A DNA stretch of 64,000 nt. Origin: a bacterium SCSIO 12643 (GTDB taxonomy: Bacteria; Bacteroidota; Bacteroidia; Flavobacteriales_G; Salibacteraceae). Each line of letters starts with the position of its first letter. Within the stretch, counting starts at the first letter, position 1. Below the pieces are notes generated by a model. It had not been told where the DNA came from. It saw nothing but the letters and a program-made list of their open reading frames with translations, and searched no databases. This document shows, piece after piece, positions 11,429 to 38,193 of this stretch. The position numbers were made by a program, and so were the translations under genes. The stretch lies in assembly GCA_024398135.1 (NCBI GenBank), contig CP073750.1, forward strand, positions 744,001 to 808,000, written 5' to 3'.

Positions 11429-12139
11429 CTAGATAATAGCCCTGACTAAATGTAACGCTTCAGCCAACCTTACCCCATTAGCCACGCCCCACATTTTTGC
11501 ACGAATTTCAAGTGCCTCAGGTGATCTAGGATGGGGATATTCTCTTTTCTCAAATTCATATGCCTCCATAGCTGTGATTTTAGCATTTAAATCCTTTTGA
11601 CCAATTTCGATAAATAGATTTGGAGTAAAGTGATGCGGATCAGTTGAAGCTCTCCATTCTGTTCCTGACATCGTTTCAAATGTAATTATTGTTTTAACCA
11701 ATTCATGCTCCATTGGTCTACAGGCCGTAATTACAGCTTCAAAAGTTCTTTGATGATCAATATTTACATCGCCTCCATGATGTGTGAAAACTACTTCGGG
11801 TTGGAATTCTGCCTTCTCTTTTTCTATTACTTTAATGATATCAAGTAAAGCAACAGTATCAAAGCGATTATCCGGAAAGTCATAAATACCTACAGACTCA
11901 TATCCAATTGCTTTCCTTGCTGTTTCAATGTTTTGACGATGTATATCTATTTCACTCTGCCATAGCTTTGGGTCGCGGTGATCAGACCTAGATGTAATCC
12001 CTTCACCTAAGATTATTGCTCTTACGGAACATTGAAATTCAGCTACTAACCTATGTACGGTTCCACCAATGCCCAATACCTCATCATCAGGGTGCGCTAC
12101 TACGACAAATATCTTCTTATTTCTTAAAAATTCTAACAT
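11429..12139 (-). CDS. PIG-L/LmbE family deacetylase
   Basis: A 236-residue zinc-dependent N-deacetylase-fold protein. The N-terminal VVVAHPDDEVLGIGG (AHPDDE at residues 15-20) is the PIG-L metal and catalytic motif. A second motif, FTHHGGDVNIDHQ, carries the third metal ligand. Known relatives remove N-acetyl groups from GlcNAc-type sugars (GlcNAc-PI, MshB, BshB). In this locus it follows two formyltransferase-fold genes and PseI, so it could free an amino group of a nonulosonate or its precursor for formylation; this is inference. Its start overlaps the end of the formyltransferase gene by 23 bases. A conserved C-terminal region (AMEAYEFEKREYPHPRSPEAL) is also typical of the family. Confidence 0.85.
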   Translation of the reverse strand: MLEFLRNKKIFVVVAHPDDEVLGIGGTVHRLVAEFQCSVRAIILGEGITSRSDHRDPKLWQSEIDIHRQNIETARKAIGYESVGIYDFPDNRFDTVALLDIIKVIEKEKAEFQPEVVFTHHGGDVNIDHQRTFEAVITACRPMEHELVKTIITFETMSGTEWRASTDPHHFTPNLFIEIGQKDLNAKITAMEAYEFEKREYPHPRSPEALEIRAKMWGVANGVRLAEALHLVRAII

Positions 12140-12791
12140 CTGATAAAATTGATTTATTTGATTTCAGAGAAGCTCGAGAAAATTCCATACGAAGATACTC
12201 AGTCTCTAAAAATGCTTTTGGATAACCTTCACAATCCAACATGCGTATATAATCAAACACCTCGTTTAACTCTTTTAATTCAGCTACATTTCCCTGATTG
12301 GGCTTCCGTCTTGAGAAAACAACAGGCTCACCCTCTTGGGGAATGGGCATAGGATTTAATTGAATAATTGTGTCTATCATTTTCGAGATTACCACAGCAC
12401 CTCGAATAAAAATCTCCTCCGCTGTTCCAAACAACGATAATGGCGCTTTTAAATAAATAGCACCAGTATCAATTCCCTCTGAAACTTTAATAGCCGATAT
12501 TTGAGTGTCTACATGACCTCGAACAATTAAATTCTGTAATGGACTCCCTCCTCTTCCATATGGAAGATCAGTCATGTGAAAAACAATACACTCAAATCTG
12601 TCAAATATTTCTGAAGGGATAATCTGAGACCAATGAGGAATAAATATTCTTTTTGGCTGAATTTCATATAATTTCTTCAAATGAAAGTCTTTTTCAGAAG
12701 AAATTCGAAACCAATTTTCATTCGCTCTTGCCGACAAGTTGTTAAATAAATCATCATGCCATGGCTTTGAAGTTAATAGAATATAATTCAT
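12117..12791 (-). CDS. Formyltransferase-fold enzyme (Fmt/ArnA-N-like), nonulosonic acid cluster, copy 1
   Basis: A 224-residue protein like the catalytic domain of methionyl-tRNA or sugar-amine formyltransferases, which use 10-formyl-THF. Visible are FHMTDLPYGRGGSP with His72 and EGIDTGAIY with Asp108. The His-Asp spacing of 36 equals that of E. coli Fmt (H108/D144). The Asn usually two residues before the His is Val70 here. I start at the ATG at 12791, two bases from the PseI stop and directly before MNYILLTSKPW; an upstream in-frame ATG at 12830 would overlap PseI by 38 bases. It probably formylates an amino sugar in the Pse-type pathway; the exact substrate is not known. Confidence 0.75.
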   Translation of the reverse strand: MNYILLTSKPWHDDLFNNLSARANENWFRISSEKDFHLKKLYEIQPKRIFIPHWSQIIPSEIFDRFECIVFHMTDLPYGRGGSPLQNLIVRGHVDTQISAIKVSEGIDTGAIYLKAPLSLFGTAEEIFIRGAVVISKMIDTIIQLNPMPIPQEGEPVVFSRRKPNQGNVAELKELNEVFDYIRMLDCEGYPKAFLETEYLRMEFSRASLKSNKSILSDVRIFKK

Positions 12792-12792
12792 A

Positions 12793-13842
12793 TTATAAAT
12801 CGTTCCAGGTAAGTGGGGTTCCTCTTTCAAAATCTTTGATGGCTACTTTACCTAATATAGATTCATAGTATCTGGGTTCCATACCATCACCCGGTCTGAT
12901 AATGCGAACATTTTTTTCCGTAAACATTTCCCCCTTTTTAATCTCATTGACTACATATACCGATCGTTTAAATCGTAAACTGGCATTTTCATCTTTTAAA
13001 ATTTCATATTTTACTTCACCTACCGCTTCCCAAGCACGCTTTGATTCTATAACCAGAGCCTGAAGCTCAGCAGGCTCAATAGAGAAGGCCGCATCTACCC
13101 CTCCCTCTTCTCTGGATATAGTAAAGTGTTTCTCTATTACACGCGCACCAAATGCTACAGAAGCAACAGCAGCCCCAATACCCCCGGTATGATCAGACAA
13201 TCCTGTATAGCAACCGAACATTTCTCTCATATGACTAATAGTCGCTAAATTGGTATTCTTTGGACTTGCAGGATAGGTGCTCGTACATTTTAATAAAATC
13301 AAATCCTTACACCCGTTTTCTCTTAAAACACTCACCGAACCAGCAATATCACTTAAAGTAGACGCCCCAGTTGACATGATAACCGGTTTCCCCGTTTTGG
13401 CTACCTTTTTAAGTAATGGCCAATCCTTATTTTCAAAAGAAGCAATTTTATAGACGGGAACATCAAGCTCTTCTAAAAAGTCAACTGAAGTAGCATCAAA
13501 TGGAGTACTAAACGGAATCAAACCTCTCTCCTTTGCCCGATCAAAAATAGGTTTATGCCATTCCCAAGGTGTATACGCAATTTGATAAAGATCATGTAAC
13601 GTCTTACCGTGCCATAAGGATTTTGGATCATCAATATAAAACAAGCCTTTATCACAAGGGATCGTCATAGTATCAGCCGTATAGGTTTGTATTTTTAAAG
13701 CATGTGCTCCTGCATCTGCAGCCGCATCCACAATTTCTAACGCTTTTTCTAATGATTGATTATGATTCCCAGACATCTCTGCAATAATAAATGGAGCACT
13801 AGCATCACTAATTTCAAAATCGGCAATCTTAAAACTATTCAT
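12793..13842 (-). CDS. pseI: Pseudaminic acid synthase PseI (NeuB family)
   Basis: It condenses a 2,4-diamido-2,4,6-trideoxy hexose with phosphoenolpyruvate to give pseudaminic acid (or a close variant) in the cytoplasm. The protein has 349 residues, as expected. The TIM-barrel NeuB domain shows IIAEMSGNHNQSLEKA, ALKIQTY, PFSTPFDATSVDFL, STGAS, KCTSTYP, LSDHTGG and EKHFT. The C-terminal SAF (antifreeze-like) domain, about residues 288-349, has FKRSVYVVNEIKKGE. The IIAEMSGNHNQ form is typical of PseI, against AEAGVNH in sialic and legionaminic acid synthases. It overlaps the upstream formyltransferase gene by 8 bases. Confidence 0.92.
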   Translation of the reverse strand: MNSFKIADFEISDASAPFIIAEMSGNHNQSLEKALEIVDAAADAGAHALKIQTYTADTMTIPCDKGLFYIDDPKSLWHGKTLHDLYQIAYTPWEWHKPIFDRAKERGLIPFSTPFDATSVDFLEELDVPVYKIASFENKDWPLLKKVAKTGKPVIMSTGASTLSDIAGSVSVLRENGCKDLILLKCTSTYPASPKNTNLATISHMREMFGCYTGLSDHTGGIGAAVASVAFGARVIEKHFTISREEGGVDAAFSIEPAELQALVIESKRAWEAVGEVKYEILKDENASLRFKRSVYVVNEIKKGEMFTEKNVRIIRPGDGMEPRYYESILGKVAIKDFERGTPLTWNDL

Positions 13843-14473
13843 TTTCCTCGCTGTATATTTTTATTATGTATTTCTTTTTATTTATCCAAAAATAGGCCGG
13901 ATAGCGCTCATTATCACACACTCGTAACATATTAAATTGCTCTGCCAAATTTTTTTGAATATCTAACGCACTATCTTTTGCGGTTCTTTTGGCATAAAAC
14001 GACTCTTCTCCCTTTTGTTCCCGTGCACTAACATTGGGATATGCATTTACGAATCGAACAATTAAATCATTGGTAACTATTCCCTGTATATGTTTGATTT
14101 CAGGTAACAGTTCTTGCCCGGTTAATTCCATATATTCCTGATCATAAATCACTCCAGAATCAATAGATTCCGTTGCTTCGAACAGGGTAACCGGAATTCT
14201 ATTTTTTCCTTCCAATATTTGCCAAGTCACAGGTGACCAACCTTTCCCCCTTGGCAAATCACTTTCATGAACCACCAAATTATGGGTATTTAATACCAAA
14301 TTAGAAAACTTCTTTTCACACGCTAACAAACACAAAATATCGCCACTCTCCACTTCATCATGTTTATGAATCAAGGACACCTTGTGCCCCAACTGTTGTA
14401 ACTTGGTTAATAGTTCTTTTGCATAGGGAATAATCCAAGAACCTTTATTGTCTACTAAAAGTTGAATCTTCAT
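13835..14473 (-). CDS. Formyltransferase-fold enzyme, nonulosonic acid cluster, copy 2
   Basis: A 212-residue relative of the Fmt/ArnA formyltransferase domain, more divergent than the neighbour at 12117. It has VVHESDLPRGKGWSP with His69 and ESIDSGVIY with Asp105; the 36-residue His-Asp spacing of the family is kept. The usual catalytic Asn two before the His is Val67. It sits between PseG (4-base overlap) and PseI (8-base overlap), exactly where a PseH acyltransferase would be expected in the pathway. It is therefore a candidate for N-acylation (formylation) of the UDP-4-amino sugar made by PseC. That role is inference from position and fold. Confidence 0.72.
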   Translation of the reverse strand: MKIQLLVDNKGSWIIPYAKELLTKLQQLGHKVSLIHKHDEVESGDILCLLACEKKFSNLVLNTHNLVVHESDLPRGKGWSPVTWQILEGKNRIPVTLFEATESIDSGVIYDQEYMELTGQELLPEIKHIQGIVTNDLIVRFVNAYPNVSAREQKGEESFYAKRTAKDSALDIQKNLAEQFNMLRVCDNERYPAYFWINKKKYIIKIYSEENE

Positions 14474-15486
14474 GATATGTTTTTAAATAGATTTTGATAA
14501 CGACCTTTCACTTGGGAATCAATAATATGCGTATGTCTTTCTTGAATACTCTTCAATTCCAGAAGATTCAATTCTTTCCATGCACTAGCAAAATCTTTAA
14601 ATTTATTGGAATCCACAAATGCATGAAGGGCCTTAAATCCATTAAAAATTTTCAATTGATTATCAGCGTAATAACCAGAAATTATGGGTAATCGCATAGC
14701 GATCGCCTCAAAAAGTAAACCACTTGCTGGCAAAACACCAAAATCAGCACCTTTCATTAACTGACACATTTCAATTTCAGATAGCCCTTGATGGACCTTC
14801 ACTCTTTCATTTTGTATAAAAGGAGAAAGTGAATCCATGTAGGCATAACTATTCCCGATGACAACATCAAACTCCACTTTCGTATGCTTTACGAACCAAT
14901 CAAGGGTCAATTTTGTCAGGTTGTAAAAATCAGCTCCACCAAAAGAAATTACTGCTTTTTTCAATTTATTTTTCACCTCATACCCATTAGTCATTGCTTG
15001 CAAAAATGCTGGTCTCAATAATGCGTACTTAGGACCTAATGCTGTACCAAAACAGTTACTAGGTAAGACATAATTCTTTTCTTCCACTCCTGGTGCATGA
15101 TTAATTATTAGATCCACTTCATATGTTCCGCCACCATCATCTTCTATCATCACCACATAGACATCATTCCTTTTTAGTTTACGACAGTAGTCTAACCCAA
15201 ACCAATATCCATCCAAGACCACAATATCAACCCCTTTAGCATAATCTCCTAAATCAAATGGTATATAGCCTATTCTCTCATCCGGAGTGGTATAAACGAA
15301 AGCCTTCAATTCTATTAAATTGAAACCACTTTCAATAATTACCTTCTGAAGACTTTGTGAAGGAGCAGAAACGGCAAAACTGATTTGAAAATTATCCGCT
15401 AACATTTTGGCCAGAGCTAAACATCTGTAAAAGTGCCCCCAACCAATTTTAGCATTAGCATCTACTCTAAAAAGAATTTTAGTCAT
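14470..15486 (-). CDS. pseG: UDP-2,4-diacetamido-2,4,6-trideoxy-beta-L-altropyranose hydrolase PseG
   Basis: It removes UDP from the N-acylated nucleotide sugar, giving the free hexose used by PseI. The 338-residue GT-B-like protein starts ILFRVDANAKIGWGHFYRC; the GxGHxxR motif with His18 matches the catalytic region of PseG. Further on are FGGADFYN and the C-terminal substrate loop GLLFEAIAMRLPII. It is coupled to PseF upstream (8-base overlap) and to the formyltransferase-fold gene downstream (4-base overlap). If N4 carries formyl instead of acetyl in this organism, PseG would have to accept that substrate. Confidence 0.9.
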   Translation of the reverse strand: MTKILFRVDANAKIGWGHFYRCLALAKMLADNFQISFAVSAPSQSLQKVIIESGFNLIELKAFVYTTPDERIGYIPFDLGDYAKGVDIVVLDGYWFGLDYCRKLKRNDVYVVMIEDDGGGTYEVDLIINHAPGVEEKNYVLPSNCFGTALGPKYALLRPAFLQAMTNGYEVKNKLKKAVISFGGADFYNLTKLTLDWFVKHTKVEFDVVIGNSYAYMDSLSPFIQNERVKVHQGLSEIEMCQLMKGADFGVLPASGLLFEAIAMRLPIISGYYADNQLKIFNGFKALHAFVDSNKFKDFASAWKELNLLELKSIQERHTHIIDSQVKGRYQNLFKNIS

Positions 15487-16171
15487 TCAACATCAACTTA
15501 TATTTTAACTCAGCTAGTAGCCAATCTGTTTCAGTATCAATATCCTGTCCTTCTATTTCAGAAATTACAATATAACCACTATTTGATGTGTAAAGCTTTT
15601 GGTTTTCCACAAATTTCTTTAAATCGCAAAAGTAAAACTGTCCCGCATCATGATACATTGTTTCTAAATCTTGTGATCGTGTATTCATATACTCTGGAAA
15701 ATTCATAATAACTTTGTCGCCCTGAGTTTTTAACGACCTCTGAACAGGAAAGCCAAATGACATTATTGGAAATACAGTGTCAAAATTCCCCTTAACCAAT
15801 TTAGTAAATGCTTCCGTCAACTTTTCTTTTGTAACGAAAGGAGCCGTTGGATAAATACACACTCCGTAATCAAAATGATTCCCTTGTTTAGTGTATTCTT
15901 CAATTACTTCAAGCATTACATCTGAAGTACTAGCAAAATCATCTGAATTTTTCATGGAACGCAAAAAAGGTACTTTTGCACCATATTTCAATGCGATTTC
16001 TTTAATCTCCAAATCATCTGTAGATACCATTACCTCATCAAAAAGTTTCGACTCAATAGCTGCGCGGATGGAATACGCAATAATCGGCTTTCCTGAAAAT
16101 TTCTTGATATTTTTTCGTGGAATCCTTTTACTTCCTCCTCTAGCGGTAATAATCGCTATATTCTTAGGCAT
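15479..16171 (-). CDS. pseF: Pseudaminic acid cytidylyltransferase PseF
   Basis: It activates the nonulosonic acid with CTP to the CMP-sugar used by glycosyltransferases. The protein has 230 residues. The N-terminal IAIITARGGSKRIPRKNIK is the CTP-binding motif of the NeuA/PseF family; YPTAPFVTKEKL and the DIDTETDW metal-binding segment near the C-terminus are also visible. It overlaps PseC by 8 bases upstream and PseG by 8 bases downstream. A second cytidylyltransferase domain occurs at 20576-22225. Confidence 0.92.
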   Translation of the reverse strand: MPKNIAIITARGGSKRIPRKNIKKFSGKPIIAYSIRAAIESKLFDEVMVSTDDLEIKEIALKYGAKVPFLRSMKNSDDFASTSDVMLEVIEEYTKQGNHFDYGVCIYPTAPFVTKEKLTEAFTKLVKGNFDTVFPIMSFGFPVQRSLKTQGDKVIMNFPEYMNTRSQDLETMYHDAGQFYFCDLKKFVENQKLYTSNSGYIVISEIEGQDIDTETDWLLAELKYKLMLND

Positions 16172-17321
16172 TGTAAAATTCGTTTATTTTATCAATAACA
16201 AAACACTGTTCCTCATCTGTCAAAGAAGGAAACATAGGTAAACTTAAGCAACGGGAATAATAAGCCTCCGCATTTGGTAGGTCACCTTCTTTCCAACCTA
16301 AACCACGATAATAAGGACTAAGATGAACAGGAATATAATGTACTTGTCCAAAGACACCATGTTCCCTTAAATAATCATAAAGTTCTTTTCTTCTATCAGT
16401 TAAAATCACATATAAATGATATGCATGTCCAATTCCTTGATCAACGAAAGGTGTCTTGATTTGACAAACATTTTCAAAAGCTTTATTGTATTTCTCAGCA
16501 ATTTCATTTCTTCTAACTATTCCTCTTTTTGCCCTATCTAATTGAGAAATACCTAATGCACAATTTATATCTGACAAACGATAATTATACCCCAATTCCT
16601 GCATCTCATAATACCATCCTCCATGATTTTCATTTAGTTTATTCGGTTCCTTAGTAATCCCATGTGAACTGTATAACTTGAGTTTTTTATACAACTCTTC
16701 ACTATTTGTTGTTACCATCCCACCTTCTCCGGTAGCGATATGTTTTACAGGGTGAAATGAGAATACTTGCAAATCGGAATAAGCTCCATTCCCACAATAT
16801 TGAATCTTATTTTTAGAATCCACAAAATAACCTCCTGGTGCATGACATGCATCTTCAATAATCCACATGTCATATTTTAGCGCAATTTCCTTTAATCTTT
16901 CTGCATTAATCGGGTACCCTGCAAAATCTACAGGTATAATACCTTTGTATGTTCCTTTAGGAGCTTTTTCTAGTTTTTCTTCTAAGAGATCTAAATCCAT
17001 CAAATAAGTTGAAGAATCTATATCTACAAAATCTATATCAGCTCCACAATACAATACCGAATTAGCAGATGCTGCAAACGTTATCGGTGTAGTAATAACC
17101 TTGTCACCTTTGTTTAACCCTAAAACCAAATTAGCCAAATGCAATGCATCTGTTCCATTTGTTACAGCTACAGCATACTTTGCTCCAACATAATTCGCAA
17201 ATTTATCTTCAAACTCTTTAACCATTGGTCCCTGAGTCAAAAAGTCCGATTTTAACGTTTGGATAACCTTAGTTATATCCTCTTCTGTTATATTCTGCCT
17301 TCCATAAGGTATTATCTTCAT
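16164..17321 (-). CDS. pseC: UDP-4-amino-4,6-dideoxy-N-acetyl-beta-L-altrosamine transaminase PseC
   Basis: A PLP-dependent aminotransferase of the DegT/DnrJ/EryC1 family, 385 residues. It converts the 4-keto product of PseB into the 4-amino sugar with glutamate as donor. Visible are the start IIPYGRQNITEEDI, the cofactor Asp in EDACHAPGG and the Schiff-base lysine in FSFHPVKHIATGEGG. It follows PseB by 27 bases and overlaps PseF, so the genes form one operon. Confidence 0.93.
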   Translation of the reverse strand: MKIIPYGRQNITEEDITKVIQTLKSDFLTQGPMVKEFEDKFANYVGAKYAVAVTNGTDALHLANLVLGLNKGDKVITTPITFAASANSVLYCGADIDFVDIDSSTYLMDLDLLEEKLEKAPKGTYKGIIPVDFAGYPINAERLKEIALKYDMWIIEDACHAPGGYFVDSKNKIQYCGNGAYSDLQVFSFHPVKHIATGEGGMVTTNSEELYKKLKLYSSHGITKEPNKLNENHGGWYYEMQELGYNYRLSDINCALGISQLDRAKRGIVRRNEIAEKYNKAFENVCQIKTPFVDQGIGHAYHLYVILTDRRKELYDYLREHGVFGQVHYIPVHLSPYYRGLGWKEGDLPNAEAYYSRCLSLPMFPSLTDEEQCFVIDKINEFYNA

Positions 17322-17348
17322 AACAAATCAACTTCAATAAATATATTC

Positions 17349-18359
17349 CTAAATGGTACTATCCACGTGAGATTTAATTAAACTCCTTAAACTATCTATT
17401 GTTTCCCATTCGGTATTATCTCCAGAATTGTATGAAAACCCAGATGGAACTAATTTGGCATTTTGTTGTTCTATAAAAGAACTCAAATTAAAAGTTGGCT
17501 GCGATGGTAATATTGCATAATAGGTTCCTAGATCATATGTATAAAAAGCATCTGAAGTAGTTATCATCTCTTCATGGATTTTTTCACCAGGCCTTATCCC
17601 TACAACCTTTTTCTCACAATCTGGTCCAATCGCTTCAGCAACATCCATAATCCTGTATGAAGGAATTTTCGGAACAAAAATTTCTCCACCCCAAGCATTT
17701 TCTATTGCATGGAACACCATATCAATTCCTCCATCTAGTGAAATATTGAATCTTGTCATTTTTTTATCCGTAATAGGTAAAACTCCTTCCTTTCTTTTAT
17801 CCATAAAAAAAGGTATTACAGATCCATTCGATCCCATAACATTACCATATCTCACCACTGAAAATCTCAAATCACGATCTCCCTTGATATTATTTGCTGC
17901 AACGAATAACTTATCCGAGGCTAGCTTTGTTGCTCCATAAAGATTAATCGGGGCACATGCCTTATCCGTAGATAAAGCTACCACGTCTTTAACCCCAGTT
18001 TTCAAACAAGCATCAATTACATTTTGAGCTCCAGAAATATTAGTTTTAACTGCTTCATCCGGGTTATACTCTGCTAGATGAACATGTTTCATTGCAGCGG
18101 CATGAATTACAATATCAATTCCCTCCATCGCTCTAATCAACCTTTCTTTATCTCGCACATCTCCAATAAAAAATCGAATCGCTGGATATTCATAATGAGG
18201 AAACTCCTGATCCATAACAAATTGCTTTTGTTCATCCCTAGAATAAATCACCACTCTTTTAACATTTGGCCATTGACCAAAAATCCTTCTAGTCATTTGC
18301 TTCCCTAATGATCCAGTTCCACCGGTAATTAGAATTGACTTACCATTTAAATCCAACAT
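17349..18359 (-). CDS. pseB: UDP-N-acetylglucosamine 4,6-dehydratase (inverting) PseB
   Basis: First committed enzyme of pseudaminic acid synthesis: it turns UDP-GlcNAc into UDP-2-acetamido-2,6-dideoxy-L-arabino-hexos-4-ulose. The protein is an extended short-chain dehydrogenase of 336 residues. It has the NAD-binding ILITGGTGSLGKQ, the catalytic LYGATKLASDK (with Lys), ALSTDKA, and YSRDEQKQ, which is characteristic of PseB/FlaA1. It starts 38 bases after the Wzz-like gene and leads the PseB-C-F-G-(formyltransferase)-I run. No dedicated promoter is evident in that short gap. Confidence 0.94.
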   Translation of the reverse strand: MLDLNGKSILITGGTGSLGKQMTRRIFGQWPNVKRVVIYSRDEQKQFVMDQEFPHYEYPAIRFFIGDVRDKERLIRAMEGIDIVIHAAAMKHVHLAEYNPDEAVKTNISGAQNVIDACLKTGVKDVVALSTDKACAPINLYGATKLASDKLFVAANNIKGDRDLRFSVVRYGNVMGSNGSVIPFFMDKRKEGVLPITDKKMTRFNISLDGGIDMVFHAIENAWGGEIFVPKIPSYRIMDVAEAIGPDCEKKVVGIRPGEKIHEEMITTSDAFYTYDLGTYYAILPSQPTFNLSSFIEQQNAKLVPSGFSYNSGDNTEWETIDSLRSLIKSHVDSTI

Positions 18360-18397
18360 GTTTTTTATTTTATTATTTTAAACTTAGTTATAAGACT

Positions 18398-19444
18398 CTA
18401 TTTTTTCTTTCCTAAACCAATTAAATAATGATTCAATTCAATCCCAATTAAAACCAATAACATCAATGAAATAATTACTAGAGGAAATCTAATCATTGAC
18501 TTATCCATTGCAGAGTTTTTTTCAAATCCAACAGATTGGAAATTTGACACTATATTTAGAATTTCAGATTGTAAGATTCTTGATCTACTCAAGTCGTCCA
18601 GTCTTTTATTTACTTTTTGTTCTTCAGAAAAAAGTTTAAGCTCATTTGACGAATCTTTCTCTCCCCCCATATTGATGCTGGTTCCTTGAACAGATTCTTT
18701 TTTAGCTTCAAGCAACAAAACATCTTTATACACACTTCTTAGCGAATCTATTTCACTTAAAGAAGACTCCAAATATTGCTGGTTTCTGTCTAACAATTCT
18801 TTTTCAGACTCTTCTAGTCTTTTGAAATAGTTATTGTCTACGACATTAGAAACGATATCCTTTTCTAGTTTGATAAATACATTATTAGAATTAGACACAA
18901 CAATAATCTCGTGTTGACTAAAAGAATATTCTGGAAAATTATCCTTGTAGCTTTCATAATCAAAATTTAGAGCAATTGTCGAGTCAATAGAACTTAAAAA
19001 CTCATCATAAGTAGACAGCAAATAATTTTCATTAATTACTGGTTGAATCTCAAAACTAACCAAAGACTCCGCTTCCTCAGTTGAAATATGAAATACTTCA
19101 GAAAGCATTTTCGTATTTCCTTGCGCAATTAATTCGTCATAAAAACTAATATTTTTATATAGCTGGCGGCCGCTTTCATAGTTCGGTTTGACCACCATGG
19201 ACGCCTCATATTGAGGCTCCGCTATATAATCCAATAAAAATCCAATTGCTCCACCTAATCCCCCAACTATCATCAACTTGATAATATGCTTTCTAAGAAA
19301 TAGCAAACAGGCTAAAAAGATATTCAACAATCCAAATATTAAATTCTTAATAAAATCAACAAAACCCTTTATTCCATCACCAATAAAAGTAAACAACTGA
19401 CTTAAATCTATTTCTTCGTCTTTATGGGAAGTATTATCTGACAT
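18398..19444 (-). CDS. Wzz-like chain-length/polysaccharide co-polymerase protein
   Basis: A 348-residue inner-membrane protein. An amphipathic or hydrophobic N-terminal region (about 35-75) leads into a large periplasmic region with coiled-coil character (around 205-300), and a second membrane segment (about 322-342) precedes a basic tail. This two-segment layout matches Wzz/PCP proteins, which set glycan length together with Wzy. The region after the first segment (EPQYEASMVVKPNYES) also fits Wzz. There is no tyrosine-kinase domain. The sequence is divergent, so this is a topology-plus-context call. A TACTTTTG element at 19462-19469 probably starts a transcript through this gene into pseB and beyond. 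Confidence 0.75.
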   Translation of the reverse strand: MSDNTSHKDEEIDLSQLFTFIGDGIKGFVDFIKNLIFGLLNIFLACLLFLRKHIIKLMIVGGLGGAIGFLLDYIAEPQYEASMVVKPNYESGRQLYKNISFYDELIAQGNTKMLSEVFHISTEEAESLVSFEIQPVINENYLLSTYDEFLSSIDSTIALNFDYESYKDNFPEYSFSQHEIIVVSNSNNVFIKLEKDIVSNVVDNNYFKRLEESEKELLDRNQQYLESSLSEIDSLRSVYKDVLLLEAKKESVQGTSINMGGEKDSSNELKLFSEEQKVNKRLDDLSRSRILQSEILNIVSNFQSVGFEKNSAMDKSMIRFPLVIISLMLLVLIGIELNHYLIGLGKKK

Positions 19445-19461
19445 GGTTCAAAATTTTCGCG

Positions 19462-19469
19462 CAAAAGTA
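19462..19469 (-). promoter_or_regulatory. Candidate -7 element (TACTTTTG) ahead of the Wzz/Pse operon
   Basis: Minus-strand TACTTTTG fits TAnnTTTG and ends 17 bases before the ATG at 19444, a distance shared by other promoters in this window. A clear -33 TTG is not present. It would drive the Wzz-like gene and the pse genes. Confidence 0.5.
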
Positions 19470-19515
19470 GTAATTAATCCCCTTTAATGAAATTAAATTA
19501 TTCTACCAAGAACCA

Positions 19516-20574
19516 CTATTCTATACAACTCCATTTAAGAATATCATCTTCGGCCAAATCCTTGTTCACGGTCTTTCCTAAAACATTACTTATTTCGCTA
19601 GGAGAAATCCCACTTGCGGGTCTCTTCCATGTCAAATGATCACGCGTTAAAACTTCTCCTGAAGATATCTCCCTTGATAAAACCAAGCTTCTTCTTGCAT
19701 TTTTTCTTGCAGGATTTTCGGTAACAAGAGGTTCCTTCCTTTGCTTACCGATCAGCTCATAAACCAAATCCATCTTTTTATGAAAAAGCTTTAAATCCTC
19801 CTTATCCATTGCATGGTAATGGTCATTTCCAGGTAAACTTTTATCATGAGTAAAGTGTTTTTCAAGAACTACAGCCCCTAGCAAATTTGCTATTTTCAAA
19901 ACTTCCATATCTCCTGGTACGGTATGGTCAGAATATCCAGGAATCGTATTTGGATATCGCTTAAATTGATCAATAAGCATTCCTAAGTTAGCATTTTCAT
20001 TTAATGTTGGATAATTTAATATACACCCCATCAAACATACAACCGAATCATACTTTGAGATTGTTTCTAAGGCTCTCTCTATTTCCCAATGATAAGATGC
20101 GCCCGTAGACAAAATAATTGGCTTTTTATAGCTAGCTAATATTTCAATGAAAGGTAAATTCGTTATATCAGAAGATGATATTTTAAAAACATCCATTAAG
20201 TCATTCAAAAAATGAGCCGATTCCACATCAAATGGAGTAGACATAAATTCAATATCCATTGAATCACAATACTTCTTCAATTGCTCAAATTCACTTTTCC
20301 AAAATTTATCATATTTCTTAAACAGCTCAAATTGACTTGCTGTTGGTTCTTTTTCTGTATCCCAATACGCAGGACTATCTTTAGAAGCTATCTTACCTGC
20401 TTTGTAAGTTTGAAACTTAATCGCATCTGCCCCCCCTTCCTTGGCTTCATCAATAAGACGTTTTGCCAATTCAATAGATCCCTCGTGATTGACACCCGCT
20501 TCAGCAATAATATATGGTCTCATTAACCTATCATCACCTTCCTTAAAAACTTTAAAAAAATCTATAATCTTCAT
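19516..20574 (-). CDS. Second NeuB-family nonulosonic acid synthase (NeuB/LegI/SpsE-like)
   Basis: A 352-residue PEP-dependent sugar synthase paralogous to PseI. The NeuB barrel has IIAEAGVNHEGSIELAKRL, AIKFQTYKA, FMSTPFD, STGAS, GYSDHTVPGD and EKHFTHD. The C-terminal SAF domain (about 290-352) starts near ARRSLVLSREISSGE. The AEAGVNHEG form is that of sialic/legionaminic acid synthases, not of PseI, so it should make a different C9 sugar from a different stereoisomer or from ManNAc. No NeuC- or LegB/C-type gene lies in the window. It is separated by one base from the fused cytidylyltransferase/PseG-like gene, its likely partner. Confidence 0.85.
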   Translation of the reverse strand: MKIIDFFKVFKEGDDRLMRPYIIAEAGVNHEGSIELAKRLIDEAKEGGADAIKFQTYKAGKIASKDSPAYWDTEKEPTASQFELFKKYDKFWKSEFEQLKKYCDSMDIEFMSTPFDVESAHFLNDLMDVFKISSSDITNLPFIEILASYKKPIILSTGASYHWEIERALETISKYDSVVCLMGCILNYPTLNENANLGMLIDQFKRYPNTIPGYSDHTVPGDMEVLKIANLLGAVVLEKHFTHDKSLPGNDHYHAMDKEDLKLFHKKMDLVYELIGKQRKEPLVTENPARKNARRSLVLSREISSGEVLTRDHLTWKRPASGISPSEISNVLGKTVNKDLAEDDILKWSCIE

Positions 20575-20575
20575 T

Positions 20576-22225
20576 TTATCTATCTATCACGCTATTTATC
20601 AATTTCATTACCCTTTTTTTCCCGCCTTTCAAATCACTATCTAGCATCCTAGAACTCATAAACTCACGCACATCATGATTTAAGACTTTTCTAAATGTAT
20701 CTAAAATTTCAACATCAGATGTTTCATATCCTAAACCAAGATTGTAAAATCCATTTTCTTGAGATGCAAAGAAATGTGTTAATTCTCTTTCATTTTGGCA
20801 AAGAACTATACTTGGAACTCCTATTGAAGCTGCTTCGAATGTTGTCCTTCCAGCTGAAGTAAATATTATGTCGGAATTTCTCATTACAGTAGAGATATCA
20901 GATACATTGGACTTTATTTCTACGTTTGAATACGTATTTTTCAACTTATTCACTTCTTGATATCCCAACCCAACGATTACCACCAAACTAATATTTCTAC
21001 TTTCACACTCTTTATTTATTACCTTCAAAACTCTTTCAGTAAAATTATTAGGATCGACTCCTCCAAAGGACAACAAAACTCTAGATACTTTAGGATTAAC
21101 GTATAGATTATCAGTATACAAAAACTCATTTCTTAAAATAAAATATTTGGCTCCAAAATAATGATTGGATATCATACCCTTTTCAGGATACATTGCGTTA
21201 AGTACTAAATCCGCTTTTTTGGCTCCTGAACCTAAATCTTCAAAGTTTATTACTGTACATCCTGCTGCTTTAAGTTGATCAACATAATTCGATTCCGTAT
21301 CAAGTCTATCATTAATAATTACATCAGGACTCAAATTAAGAATTTCGGGAACAATGTCTTCTGTTTTCTGAATATATACTTCATAATTATATTCCGTTAT
21401 TTTCTCATACGCTAATTGACTATCAGAATCAACCAGGAAAATAACTTTATGATTCAATATCTCATTTGCAATACTCAGCGTATTGTACACGTGCCCCATA
21501 CCAACAATATTATTACCAGTAACCACAAATAATAAGGTTTTCTTATTCAAATAATACTCACATAAATTCCAATCCTCAAAGTCATCTATATCTATGGATT
21601 CTTTCTTTGATAAGGGGTAAATAGTTACATTATTTCCCAGTCTGGAACTTTCACTAACATATTCAGATTTTGTAATCAAAAAGCCTCCGGTTTCCTTGAA
21701 AACCTGAGGTAAATACTGTCTATTTACACGTTTTTCATAATTGGGTTCAAATCCAAAACTAGTTTTCTTCCAGGTTAAATGACTATCATTTACACCTGAA
21801 AGTATTGTATCAATATTTGAGTCATTCATCATAAGAATAGCCTGACGCAAACTATTAGATTTCAATAATGGAGAAGTAGGTTGCAAAGTAATTACATACT
21901 TATAATCATATCCTCTTGCATCTTTCATTCTGATATAAGCATCATATATTACTGGATCTAAAGTTACACTGTCTTCAGAGATTTCATTCTTTCGCTTTAA
22001 TGGCACAGCTCCAAACTTCTCAGCAAGTAATAATATCTCATCATCATCGCTTGAGACACAGCAATCTAATTCAACCTTACAGTTTAAAGCATTACTAATA
22101 GAATAATAAATCAATGGCTTACTATTCAATGCTCTTAAATTTTTTTGAGGAATACCTTTAGATCCTCCACGCGCAGGGATAACAACAAGTATATCCGATT
22201 GTTTATTCTCGTTCACTAAACTCAA
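20576..22225 (-). CDS. Fused CMP-nonulosonate cytidylyltransferase and PseG-like protein
   Basis: A two-domain protein of 549 residues. Residues 12-228 are a NeuA-type cytidylyltransferase (VVIPARGGSKGIPQKNL, LQPTSPL, SIDIDDFEDW). Residues 232-549 are a PseG/GT28-like domain with GMGHVYN at 242-248, SFGGVDPNNFTER and FTSAGRTTFEAASIGVPS. The histidine (His245) of the PseG GxGHxxR motif is kept but the Arg is Asn. The fusion joins the step before and the step after the synthase encoded next door (19516), so the pair could work as a compact nonulosonate branch. What sugar it handles is not evident. It is the first gene of the minus-strand glycan locus. Confidence 0.85.
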   Translation of the reverse strand: MSLVNENKQSDILVVIPARGGSKGIPQKNLRALNSKPLIYYSISNALNCKVELDCCVSSDDDEILLLAEKFGAVPLKRKNEISEDSVTLDPVIYDAYIRMKDARGYDYKYVITLQPTSPLLKSNSLRQAILMMNDSNIDTILSGVNDSHLTWKKTSFGFEPNYEKRVNRQYLPQVFKETGGFLITKSEYVSESSRLGNNVTIYPLSKKESIDIDDFEDWNLCEYYLNKKTLLFVVTGNNIVGMGHVYNTLSIANEILNHKVIFLVDSDSQLAYEKITEYNYEVYIQKTEDIVPEILNLSPDVIINDRLDTESNYVDQLKAAGCTVINFEDLGSGAKKADLVLNAMYPEKGMISNHYFGAKYFILRNEFLYTDNLYVNPKVSRVLLSFGGVDPNNFTERVLKVINKECESRNISLVVIVGLGYQEVNKLKNTYSNVEIKSNVSDISTVMRNSDIIFTSAGRTTFEAASIGVPSIVLCQNERELTHFFASQENGFYNLGLGYETSDVEILDTFRKVLNHDVREFMSSRMLDSDLKGGKKRVMKLINSVIDR

Positions 22226-33121: not shown

Positions 33122-33129
33122 TTCTGAAA

Positions 33130-33240
33130 ATTGGCAACGACATACTCTCCCGCCTATTACAGCAGTACCATCTGCGCTGGTGGGCTTAACTTCTCTGTTC
33201 GGAATGGAAAGAGGTGATCCCCACCGCTATAGTCACCATA
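33130..33240 (-). rRNA. rrf: 5S ribosomal RNA
   Basis: The minus strand shows the conserved 5S core CCATTCCGAACAGAGAAG and AAGCCCACCAGCGC, with ends that can pair (TTGGCAACGAC region with the start near 33240). Length about 110 bases; ends approximate. It is the last gene of the operon. Confidence 0.93.
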
Positions 33241-33307
33241 AACTATTCAATATTTTCGAAATTTTGAAGATAGACTTAATAACTTATACATCATCTCGGT
33301 TATTAGA

Positions 33308-36172
<2,865 letters not shown>

Positions 36173-36397
36173 AATCGAAATGATTTACAGTTATTAAGCC
36201 TTTTATAATAATATCTCTATTGTTAATGTTATCTTCAAAATTTCAAAGAACTTTTTTGATACCAATGTATCAATTGTGAAAGATTTGGAGTTGAACCATT
36301 TTCTCGCTTACCTTATTAAGCTTCTTTCTTTATTCCTTTTACAGATCTTTTGGCTCGTAAGCCGTTTTTGAGTAATTAGCGTTCCAATATACTCTTG

Positions 36398-36471
36398 TGG
36401 AGAATATCGGAGTCGAACCGATGACCTCCTGCGTGCAAGGCAGGCGCTCTAGCCAGCTGAGCTAATCCCCC
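36398..36471 (-). tRNA. tRNA-Ala (anticodon TGC)
   Basis: 74 bases on the minus strand, starting GGGGGATTAGCTCAGCTGG with anticodon loop CTTGCAC and T-arm GGTTCGACTCC. The acceptor stem pairs with TTCTCC-A. CCA is not encoded. It is the spacer tRNA next to 23S. Confidence 0.97.
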
Positions 36472-36478
36472 GTTATTG

Positions 36479-36552
36479 TAGTCCCAGGCAGACTTGAACT
36501 GCCGACCTCTACATTATCAGTGTAGCGCTCTAACCAGCTGAGCTATGGGACT
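36479..36552 (-). tRNA. tRNA-Ile (anticodon GAT)
   Basis: 74 bases on the minus strand with acceptor AGTCCCA/TGGGACT, D-arm AGCTCAGCTGG, anticodon loop CTGATAA and T-arm AGTTCAAGTCT. CCA is not encoded. It lies between 16S and tRNA-Ala, 7 bases from the latter, the usual order of a spacer Ile-Ala pair. Confidence 0.97.
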
Positions 36553-36668
36553 CTATTCCCTTTCCTCTTACCGATAAAAACCCTACCGAGATTTCCGGGA
36601 TCTCAATAATTTTAAATAGCGAAAAGCGCAAATATCCAACAGATATATAATTGTGTAGTACACTCTAA

Positions 36669-38193
<1,525 letters not shown>

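What the first reader, a model, noticed from the sequence alone, without database searches (positions are those of the whole stretch)
11429..22225. Doubled nonulosonic-acid pathway without PseH
The locus has PseB, PseC, PseF, PseG and PseI, but no GNAT-type PseH acetyltransferase. Every step after PseC appears twice: two NeuB-family synthases (PseI and an AEAGVNH-type), two cytidylyltransferases (PseF and a fusion domain), two PseG-like hydrolases (PseG and the fusion domain) and two formyltransferase-fold proteins. This suggests two different C9 acidic sugars from a shared amino-sugar pool, with formyl instead of acetyl at one amino group. Known: N-formylated Pse variants exist in some bacterial glycans. 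Inference: the branch structure and products.
Basis: partly seen in the sequence, partly recalled or inferred. Interest (0 to 1): 0.7.

Follow-up and report, generated by a model that had tools for sequence, protein, structure and literature searches.

The report
Pseudaminic-acid operon with acetyl-to-formyl swap genes
This bacterium carries a gene set for a sialic-acid-like surface sugar in which the usual acetyl-adding enzyme is missing and two formyl-adding-type enzymes plus an acetyl-removing enzyme take its place, which suggests a concrete, testable route to unusual versions of the sugar.

Summary
One tight minus-strand operon carries PseB, PseC, PseF, PseG and PseI, all over curated cut-offs. 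It also carries two formyltransferase-fold proteins, a second NeuB and a cytidylyltransferase/PseG-like fusion. No PseH passes the cut-off in the single-contig genome.

PIG-L and the second formyltransferase (FT2) recur together in pse loci: all 5 FT2 genomes among 346 (this one included) have both in one pse locus. The pair also occurs on a cyanobacterial plasmid and viral contigs. All 18 close PIG-L homologues lie in loci with nonulosonic-acid genes.

Best reading: FT1 formylates the PseC-made amine in place of PseH (C7); PIG-L strips the GlcNAc-derived acetyl and FT2 re-formylates that amine (C5). The product would be di-N-formyl, not mono-formyl, pseudaminic acid.

The fusion-NeuB2 pair looks like an independent two-gene module (5 of 5 other loci lack PseB/C/I nearby), so a 'shared pool' is not supported. 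A third NeuB locus exists. No chemistry was tested.

The parts
20576..22225 (-). Fusion: N-terminal CMP-sugar cytidylyltransferase domain plus C-terminal PseG-like hydrolase domain
   Evidence: AlphaFold model of middling confidence (mean pLDDT 66) matches CMP-NeuAc/CMP-Pse synthetases and, lower in the list, PseG 3hbm
19516..20574 (-). NeuB2, second NeuB-family synthase (AEAGVNH type)
   Evidence: next gene after the fusion in 5 of 5 other fusion loci
18398..19444 (-). Wzz-like membrane protein (chain-length type by eye; similar ORF near the fusion in L079)
   Evidence: no family search run on it
17349..18359 (-). PseB, UDP-GlcNAc 4,6-dehydratase (inverting)
   Evidence: over cut-off
16164..17321 (-). 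PseC aminotransferase
   Evidence: over cut-off
15479..16171 (-). PseF cytidylyltransferase
   Evidence: over cut-off
14470..15486 (-). PseG UDP-sugar hydrolase, without the C-terminal GNAT domain that many relatives carry
   Evidence: over cut-off; for the fused relatives
13835..14473 (-). FT1, short formyltransferase-like protein; inferred N-formyltransferase in the PseH step
12793..13842 (-). PseI pseudaminic acid synthase
   Evidence: over cut-off
12117..12791 (-). FT2, formyltransferase-like protein of the 1zgh kind (true start most likely 12791)
   Evidence: (1zgh, E 6.6e-66)
11429..12139 (-).
   Evidence: HPDD and HxxxDxNxDH motifs intact

Best explanation
The core operon makes a CMP-activated pseudaminic acid whose amino groups carry formyl instead of acetyl. 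PseB and PseC turn UDP-GlcNAc into UDP-4-amino-4,6-dideoxy-AltNAc (established chemistry of these families). FT1 formylates the new 4-amino group, future C7, in the step normally done by PseH (inferred). PIG-L removes the acetyl that came with GlcNAc, future C5, and FT2 puts formyl on the freed amine (inferred; the stage at which this happens is unknown). PseG removes UDP, PseI condenses with PEP and PseF adds CMP (established for these families). Predicted product: CMP-5,7-di-N-formyl-pseudaminic acid. The fusion plus NeuB2 is a separate module that makes a second CMP-nonulosonic acid from a nucleotide sugar that this operon need not supply. UDP-ManNAc, giving Neu5Ac, is the simplest guess but is untested.
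For: PseB/C/F/G/I over cut-offs. No PseH over cut-off in the genome and no GNAT in the window. FT2: in 5 of 346 class genomes (this one included), all 5 inside a pse locus with PIG-L, adjacent in 4 and one gene apart in 1. Among 65 other PseI loci, FT2 is in 4, all among the 12 with PIG-L (Fisher p 7e-4; loci are not independent). Same family: G365 has PseB, PseF, PseG, GNAT, FT2, PIG-L, PseI in a row. Cyanobacterial plasmid AP017960: GNAT, FT2, PIG-L, PseI contiguous. Viral collection: contig L155 (probably host DNA) has PseB, PseC, PseF, PseG, FT1, FT2, PseI, PIG-L, the window's set. PIG-L: all 18 class genomes with a close homologue (325 bits or more, this one included) have it in a locus with nonulosonic-acid genes, 12 in PseI loci and 6 in others. 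Of 13 weaker PIG-L loci fetched, 10 have a formyltransferase-like gene within two genes and the other 3 a NeuB. Logic: with no acetyltransferase found for C7, the GlcNAc-derived acetyl is the only N-acetyl in the pathway for PIG-L to remove. FT1 directly follows PseC in L085 and a DegT-like gene in viral contig L163.
Against: No chemistry was measured. In both FT1 and FT2 the residue two before the catalytic His, normally Asn in N-formyltransferases (recalled), is Val, Ile, Leu or Cys, so the mechanism may differ. One locus (L021) has PseH over cut-off together with FT1, FT2 and PIG-L, so FT1 is not strictly a PseH substitute. L155 also has a GNAT about 2.3 kb downstream. FT1 relatives occur with no NeuB nearby (L084; viral contigs L163, L164, L167, L168). 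PIG-L occurs without FT2 in 8 of 12 PseI loci, and without any formyltransferase found in the Mariluticola pse locus. A more distant PIG-L relative on a Priestia plasmid has no pse gene annotated within 8 kb. FT2 occurs without PIG-L in 5 of 11 viral contigs, 4 of them near-identical. The PIG-L substrate could be another sugar of the same glycan. Acyltransferase detection was incomplete: 24 of 65 loci gave none.
Confidence: 0.55

Rival explanations
1. Mono-formyl pathway: only one amino group is formylated, giving Pse5Ac7Fo or Pse5Fo7Ac; the other gene products act elsewhere or on the second sugar.
For: Pse5Ac7Fo is a known natural sugar (Pseudoalteromonas distincta, quoted in PMC3210612, passages). 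Sets with a GNAT plus FT2 plus PIG-L, for which one formyl is the natural prediction, exist in L052, L058, L088 and L162.
Against: Formylating C7 alone needs only FT1; formylating C5 alone would leave C7 without an enzyme, as no GNAT was found in the window. FT2 and PIG-L are not tied to the second sugar: none of the other FT2 or PIG-L genomes in the 346-genome sample carries the fusion.
Confidence: 0.2
2. PIG-L and FT2 act on a different amino sugar of the same polysaccharide (for example a GlcNAc residue), and only happen to be encoded with pse genes.
For: PIG-L-formyltransferase pairs also occur in loci with no NeuB or PseI among the genes printed (10 of 13 weaker PIG-L loci), and FT1/FT2 relatives occur in viral contigs without NeuB.
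Against: All 18 close PIG-L homologues sit with nonulosonic-acid genes, and FT2/PIG-L flank or adjoin PseI in six bacterial loci: window, L028, L052, L021, L088, L162.
Confidence: 0.15
3. A housekeeping or promiscuous GNAT elsewhere in the genome supplies PseH activity, so the sugar is still acetylated at C7 and the formyltransferase-like proteins are minor modifiers or inactive.
For: 17 weak PseH-profile matches in the genome; catalytic Asn not conserved in FT1/FT2.
Against: None reaches the cut-off and none is in the window. FT1 overlaps PseG by 4 and PseI by 8 bases, as translationally coupled genes do. His and Asp of the formyltransferase motif are kept in all aligned FT1 and FT2.
Confidence: 0.1
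4. The fusion-NeuB2 pair uses the PseB/PseC product, making a second diamino sugar from the same pool.
For: It is directly upstream of the pse genes, on the same strand (gap of 1 base inside the pair, 71 to the next gene). SpsG (PseG-like by recall) is required in a UDP-linked legionaminic route in Bacillus subtilis (PMC7439481, passages).
Against: 5 of 5 other fusion-NeuB2 loci have no PseB/C/I in the fetched stretch. PseC over cut-off is only in this genome of 5 searched. Three of those genomes have no PseI match at E 1e-90.
Confidence: 0.3

Closest known systems
Canonical CMP-Pse5Ac7Ac pathway PseB-PseC-PseH-PseG-PseI-PseF (Campylobacter, Helicobacter)
   Same: Five of six enzymes present over curated cut-offs.
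   Different: No PseH over cut-off; two formyltransferase-like proteins and a PIG-L deacetylase in the operon.
Aeromonas polar-flagellin glycosylation islands (PMC7874193, passages)
   Same: pse islands with a deacetylase between pseF and pseG or between pseH and pseI, and in one strain a GlcNAc-PI de-N-acetylase gene next to pseI; PseG-PseH chimeras noted.
   Different: 'formyl' has 0 occurrences in the main text, and the passages assign the deacetylase no specific role.
5-N-formyl-legionaminic acid in Halorubrum sp. PV6 (PMC6137143, passages)
   Same: A formyl group at C5 of a nonulosonic acid, with a predicted formyltransferase in the cluster.
   Different: Legionaminic pathway with LegH and a NeuC-type LegG; the words PIG-L and deacetylase do not occur in the main text.
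Natural pseudaminic acids with a non-acetyl group at C5 or C7: Pse5Ac7Fo of Pseudoalteromonas distincta; 5-N-lactoyl-7-N-acetyl Pse of Psychrobacter marincola (PMC3210612, PMC7281560, passages)
   Same: They show that acyl groups at both positions vary in nature.
   Different: Structures only; the passages seen give no genes for the exchange at C5.
LmbE/PIG-L sugar deacetylases such as teicoplanin deacetylase (PMC4101496, passages)
   Same: Same HxDD...H metal motif; remove acetyl from an N-acetylglucosamine unit.
   Different: Antibiotic or thiol substrates; no formyltransferase partner seen in the passages.
PDB 1zgh, deposited as methionyl-tRNA formyltransferase
   Same: FT2 matches it over nearly its whole length, E 6.6e-66.
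   Different: The search gives only the depositors' name for 1zgh; the shared HMTDLPxGRGGSPLQNLI motif is unlike the other methionyl-tRNA enzyme aligned (4iqf).

Membership tests
Pseudaminic acid (Pse) pathway | PseB, PseC, PseG, PseI, PseF equivalogs | tested here: met
   All five over NCBIfam cut-offs
Pseudaminic acid (Pse) pathway | PseH acetyltransferase (needed for Pse5Ac7Ac) | tested here: not met
   0 matches over cut-off in the genome; 3 of 66 PseI genomes in the class sample have one over cut-off, though many loci carry another GNAT
Folate-dependent N-formyltransferases (PF00551) | Profile match | tested here: inconclusive
   FT2 over the cut-off (30.8 against 26.1), FT1 just under (25.3)
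Folate-dependent N-formyltransferases (PF00551) | Catalytic Asn-His-Asp triad (recalled) | tested here: not met
   His and Asp kept; position two before His is Val, Ile, Leu or Cys, not Asn
Folate-dependent N-formyltransferases (PF00551) | Transfers formyl from N10-formyl-THF to an amino sugar | not testable with these tools
   No enzyme assay possible
PIG-L/LmbE de-N-acetylases | PF02585 match and HxDD...H metal site | tested here: met
   75.3 bits over 28.2; His16, Asp18, Asp19 and His129 present; motif as in PMC4101496
PIG-L/LmbE de-N-acetylases | Removes acetyl from the C2/C5 nitrogen of a Pse intermediate | not testable with these tools
   Inferred from context only
N-acetylneuraminate (Neu5Ac) pathway, for NeuB2 and fusion | NeuB_NnaB equivalog score | tested here: not met
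   312 bits, cut-off 400
N-acetylneuraminate (Neu5Ac) pathway, for NeuB2 and fusion | Hydrolysing 2-epimerase NeuC | tested here: not met
   The one Epimerase_2 match (E <= 1e-20) in the genome is wecB type; the PseG-like domain would have to replace NeuC

The most novel reading that the evidence does not exclude
PIG-L plus a formyltransferase is a mobile 'acyl-exchange cassette' that rewrites N-acetyl to N-formyl on bacterial sialic-acid-like sugars across several phyla and in phages. In this operon it acts together with FT1 to make a 5,7-di-N-formyl pseudaminic acid. Other partners beside PIG-L (GNAT-like or hexapeptide acyltransferases by eye) would explain other C5 acyl variants.
Probability: 0.35. 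Interest if true: 0.65.

Novelty: new variant of a known kind. Interest (0 to 1): 0.5.

Why it matters
The known Pse pathway starts from UDP-GlcNAc, so the C5 nitrogen arrives with an acetyl group. Yet natural pseudaminic acids with other groups at C5 are known. In the listings and passages I saw, no deacetylase-plus-formyltransferase route to a C5 formyl group is proposed. A deacetylase paired with a re-acylating enzyme next to PseI gives a direct, testable candidate. It would also let genome readers predict mono- and di-formyl variants. N-acyl groups of surface sugars affect antibody and phage recognition (general knowledge). FT2 and PIG-L on viral contigs suggest that phages may carry such modifications too.

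Tried and rejected
Shared pool for both sugars: rejected as the default, because the fusion-NeuB2 pair stands without PseB/C/I elsewhere.

One formyltransferase per sugar: rejected, because FT2 and PIG-L occur in pse loci without fusion-NeuB2.

Hidden PseH: searched genome-wide at E <= 10; best hit read in context.

Fusion on plasmids: of 3 records matched, I read one of the two Acinetobacter records, where pseF and pseG are separate genes; the Ensifer match covers only the first domain.

PIG-L on plasmids: 149 records at E <= 1e-20, mostly Sinorhizobium and Priestia. I read the context of three: Synechococcus (by way of FT2) and Mariluticola have pse genes, Priestia has none annotated. The others were not examined.

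Structure of FT1 from one sequence: useless, pLDDT 34. Structure of the fusion: mean pLDDT 66; it only supports the two folds.

Fusion in viral contigs: none at the patterns used. FT1 in plasmids: none.

FT1 in the class sample: 9 of 346 genomes at E <= 1e-12, six at 148 bits or more; of the three weaker ones, one is the FT2 of G088 and two (G109, G312) were not examined.

First DMB masses used a wrong reagent formula and were corrected.

Classification of acyltransferases in 65 PseI loci is incomplete: 24 gave none, and some of these hold ~330-353 aa ORFs next to PseI with only weak GNAT scores. L065 holds two PseI; only the first was used as the anchor.

Paper searches that bear on novelty: 'pseudaminic' with 'PIG-L' gave 0 papers; with 'formyl' and 'formyltransferase' 7; with 'formamido' 4; with 'N-formyl' 3; with 'deacetylase' 18; two of 'pseudaminic acid', 'formyltransferase', 'PseH' 44, 30 listed; 'nonulosonic' with 'formyltransferase' 3; two of 'nonulosonic', 'formyl', 'environmental bacteria' 133, 15 listed; a formamido term list 307, and the 30 listed looked unrelated; LmbE/de-N-acetylase terms 49, 20 listed. 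Of the 18 deacetylase papers I read passages of three. No paper was read whole. The library lacks most subscription journals, so absence there proves little.
Full report
What is there. The stretch 11429-22225 is one run of minus-strand genes. In order of transcription they are: fusion (cytidylyltransferase + PseG-like), NeuB2, a Wzz-like protein, PseB, PseC, PseF, PseG, FT1, PseI, FT2 and a PIG-L deacetylase. From PseC to PIG-L the genes overlap or nearly touch (-8, -8, -4, -8, +1, -23 bases), which suggests joint expression. PseB, PseC, PseF, PseG and PseI all pass NCBIfam's curated cut-offs. FT2 probably starts at 12791, one base after the PseI stop. The window lies at 744001-808000 of a single-contig genome of 4,118,273 bases.

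Absence of PseH. The PseH profile gives 17 matches at E <= 10 in the genome. None is over the cut-off and none is in the window. The best, 60.9 bits, sits in what looks by eye like a housekeeping neighbourhood with mltG and dapF. Absence of a PseH over cut-off is usual in the class: only 3 of 66 genomes with PseI, this one included, have a match over it. Many loci have a different GNAT. In 65 other PseI loci I found a stand-alone GNAT in 15, a GNAT within a PseG or another ORF over 400 aa in 16, a GNAT plus a formyltransferase-like gene in 8, a formyltransferase-like gene without GNAT in 2, and nothing recognisable in 24. So lack of PseH alone is ordinary. Formyltransferase-like genes with no GNAT are uncommon.

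The overlooked deacetylase. 11429-12139 is a PIG-L protein (PF02585, 75.3 bits) with an intact metal site. In the 346-genome class sample 32 genomes have a match at E <= 1e-25, and 18 of them (this genome included) a close homologue of 325 bits or more. Twelve of the 18 have it in a PseI locus. I fetched the other six, and all carry nonulosonic-acid genes: PseG with NeuB in four (L130, L131, L132, L135), PseB, PseC, PseG and NeuB in L133, and PseF with a GNAT on a short contig, L134. Of the 14 weaker matches, one is locus L021 and I fetched the other 13. Ten of the 13 have a formyltransferase-like gene within two genes of PIG-L and three a NeuB.

The FT2-PIG-L cassette. FT2 is rare: 5 of 346 class genomes and 2 of 35 family genomes, this one included in both counts. 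All five class loci have PIG-L in the same pse locus, adjacent in four and one gene away in L021 (and the window). The further family locus, G365, has GNAT-FT2-PIG-L-PseI. In 65 PseI loci FT2 is in 4 and PIG-L in 12, and all 4 overlap (Fisher p 7e-4, ignoring relatedness). Outside this class, the plasmid AP017960 of [Synechococcus] sp. NIES-970 has PseB, PseC, PseG, GNAT, FT2, PIG-L, PseI, the last four contiguous. A Mariluticola plasmid has PIG-L between pseF and pseG, with no formyltransferase found. A Priestia plasmid has a PIG-L relative with no pse gene annotated within 8 kb; the other plasmid records were not read. In the viral collection 11 contigs encode FT2. Six have PIG-L in the fetched stretch (L151, L152, L153, L154, L155, L157; L152 and L153 look identical, and there the two genes are about 6 kb apart). 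Five do not (four near-identical, plus L161 with FT2-FT1). L155 has the window's full set but lies beside a Maf glycosyltransferase and a phage-transposase-like ORF, so it is probably host DNA. L154 has terminase genes and is probably a real phage.

FT1. It is the weaker case. Close relatives lie in pse loci (window, L039, L021, L085, L155), beside PseG in the window, L039 and L155 and beside PseC in L085. They also occur in another NeuB locus (L086), in one place with no sugar genes by my labels (L084), and in viral contigs without NeuB (L163, L164, L167, L168). L021 has PseH as well. FT1 in the PseH step is therefore likely but not proven.

Mechanism. Pse biosynthesis starts from UDP-GlcNAc, whose acetamido group becomes C5; the amine made by PseC becomes C7 (established pathway knowledge; the steps are outlined in PMC6388019, passages). 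Formylation at C7 needs only a formyltransferase. Formylation at C5 needs the acetyl removed first. A deacetylase next to a formyltransferase next to PseI is the expected gene content for the second case. In this operon, in which no acetyltransferase was found, the GlcNAc-derived acetyl is the only N-acetyl available to PIG-L. The predicted product is di-N-formyl Pse. In L052, L058, L088 and L162, which keep a GNAT, the same logic predicts a mono-formyl Pse with formyl at C5. A caution: FT1, FT2 and 1zgh share motifs of the HxS/TDLP kind without the usual Asn, so their chemistry needs testing.

The second synthase. Full-length fusions are in 4 of 346 class genomes (a fifth match, G019, covers only the first domain and has stops) and in two named genomes. 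In 5 of 5 other loci NeuB2 is the next gene and no PseB, PseC or PseI lies in the stretch (weak PseB hits in L079 and L080 look like RmlB by eye). PseC over cut-off occurs only in this genome among five searched; Muricauda was not held. All five have an Epimerase_2 gene. Of four annotated, three are wecB type and one (G331) NeuC type. UDP-ManNAc is thus a possible general precursor, but Epimerase_2 genes are common (11 of 14 control genomes) and this does not decide the substrate.

A third nonulosonic-acid locus lies at about 963.5-969 kb of the same contig: GDP-mannose dehydratase (over cut-off), NeuB3 (410 bits, over the 400 cut-off), NeuD (over cut-off), a LegC-like aminotransferase (384, under 420) and a cytidylyltransferase. 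The genome may therefore make three such sugars.

Comparison with relatives. Eight of 35 family genomes have PseI. In their loci the acyl part differs almost every time: window FT1+FT2+PIG-L; G365 GNAT+FT2+PIG-L; G297 a short formyltransferase-like gene; G263 PseG-GNAT; G004 two GNATs; G350 a long ORF with a weak GNAT score; the same-genus G348 a long PseG without a clear GNAT; G349 nothing recognised. The window's combination is one of eight.

What is known. Formyltransferases in flagellin glycosylation islands were noted in Geobacillus and Enterobacteriaceae (PMC5109656, PMC4875605, passages). Geobacillus pse islands without PseH were noted in the first. Deacetylase genes in Aeromonas pse islands were noted (PMC7874193, passages). 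In the listings and passages seen I found no paper that joins a deacetylase and a formyltransferase in such a pathway. Verdict: a new variant of a known kind.

Noticed in passing
G000 C1 about 963526-968945 (L012 8526-13945): A third NeuB locus in the same genome: GDP-mannose dehydratase, NeuB, NeuD, LegC-like aminotransferase and cytidylyltransferase.
   Followed up: partly
L154, L151, L157, L152 (viral contigs): FT2 and PIG-L, in L154 with PseB and PseI, and in L152 with two NeuB, on viral contigs; L154 also has terminase genes and L151 a primase-like gene. Phages may modify or make nonulosonic acids.
   Followed up: partly
L164, L167, L168 (viral contigs): FT1 relatives in stretches that look by eye rich in glycosyltransferase-like ORFs, with short or full aminotransferase-like ORFs and without NeuB.
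   Followed up: no
L138, L139, L141, L142, L143, L146, L148: PIG-L within two genes of a formyltransferase-like gene in loci with no NeuB or PseI among the genes printed, suggesting the pairing is wider than nonulosonic acids.
   Followed up: no
window 33129-38193: A complete rRNA operon (5S, 23S, tRNA-Ala, tRNA-Ile, 16S) on the minus strand.
   Followed up: no
L018, L019, L038, L041, L045, L046, L055, L062: PseI loci with a ~330-353 aa ORF next to PseI that scores only weakly as GNAT; in L018 the PseH profile matches inside it. Possibly a GNAT fusion of unknown second half.
   Followed up: no
FT1 and FT2 families: The Asn expected two residues before the catalytic His (recalled) is replaced, while an Asp is present in the (S/T)DLP motif of most members; a possible active-site rearrangement.
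   Followed up: partly
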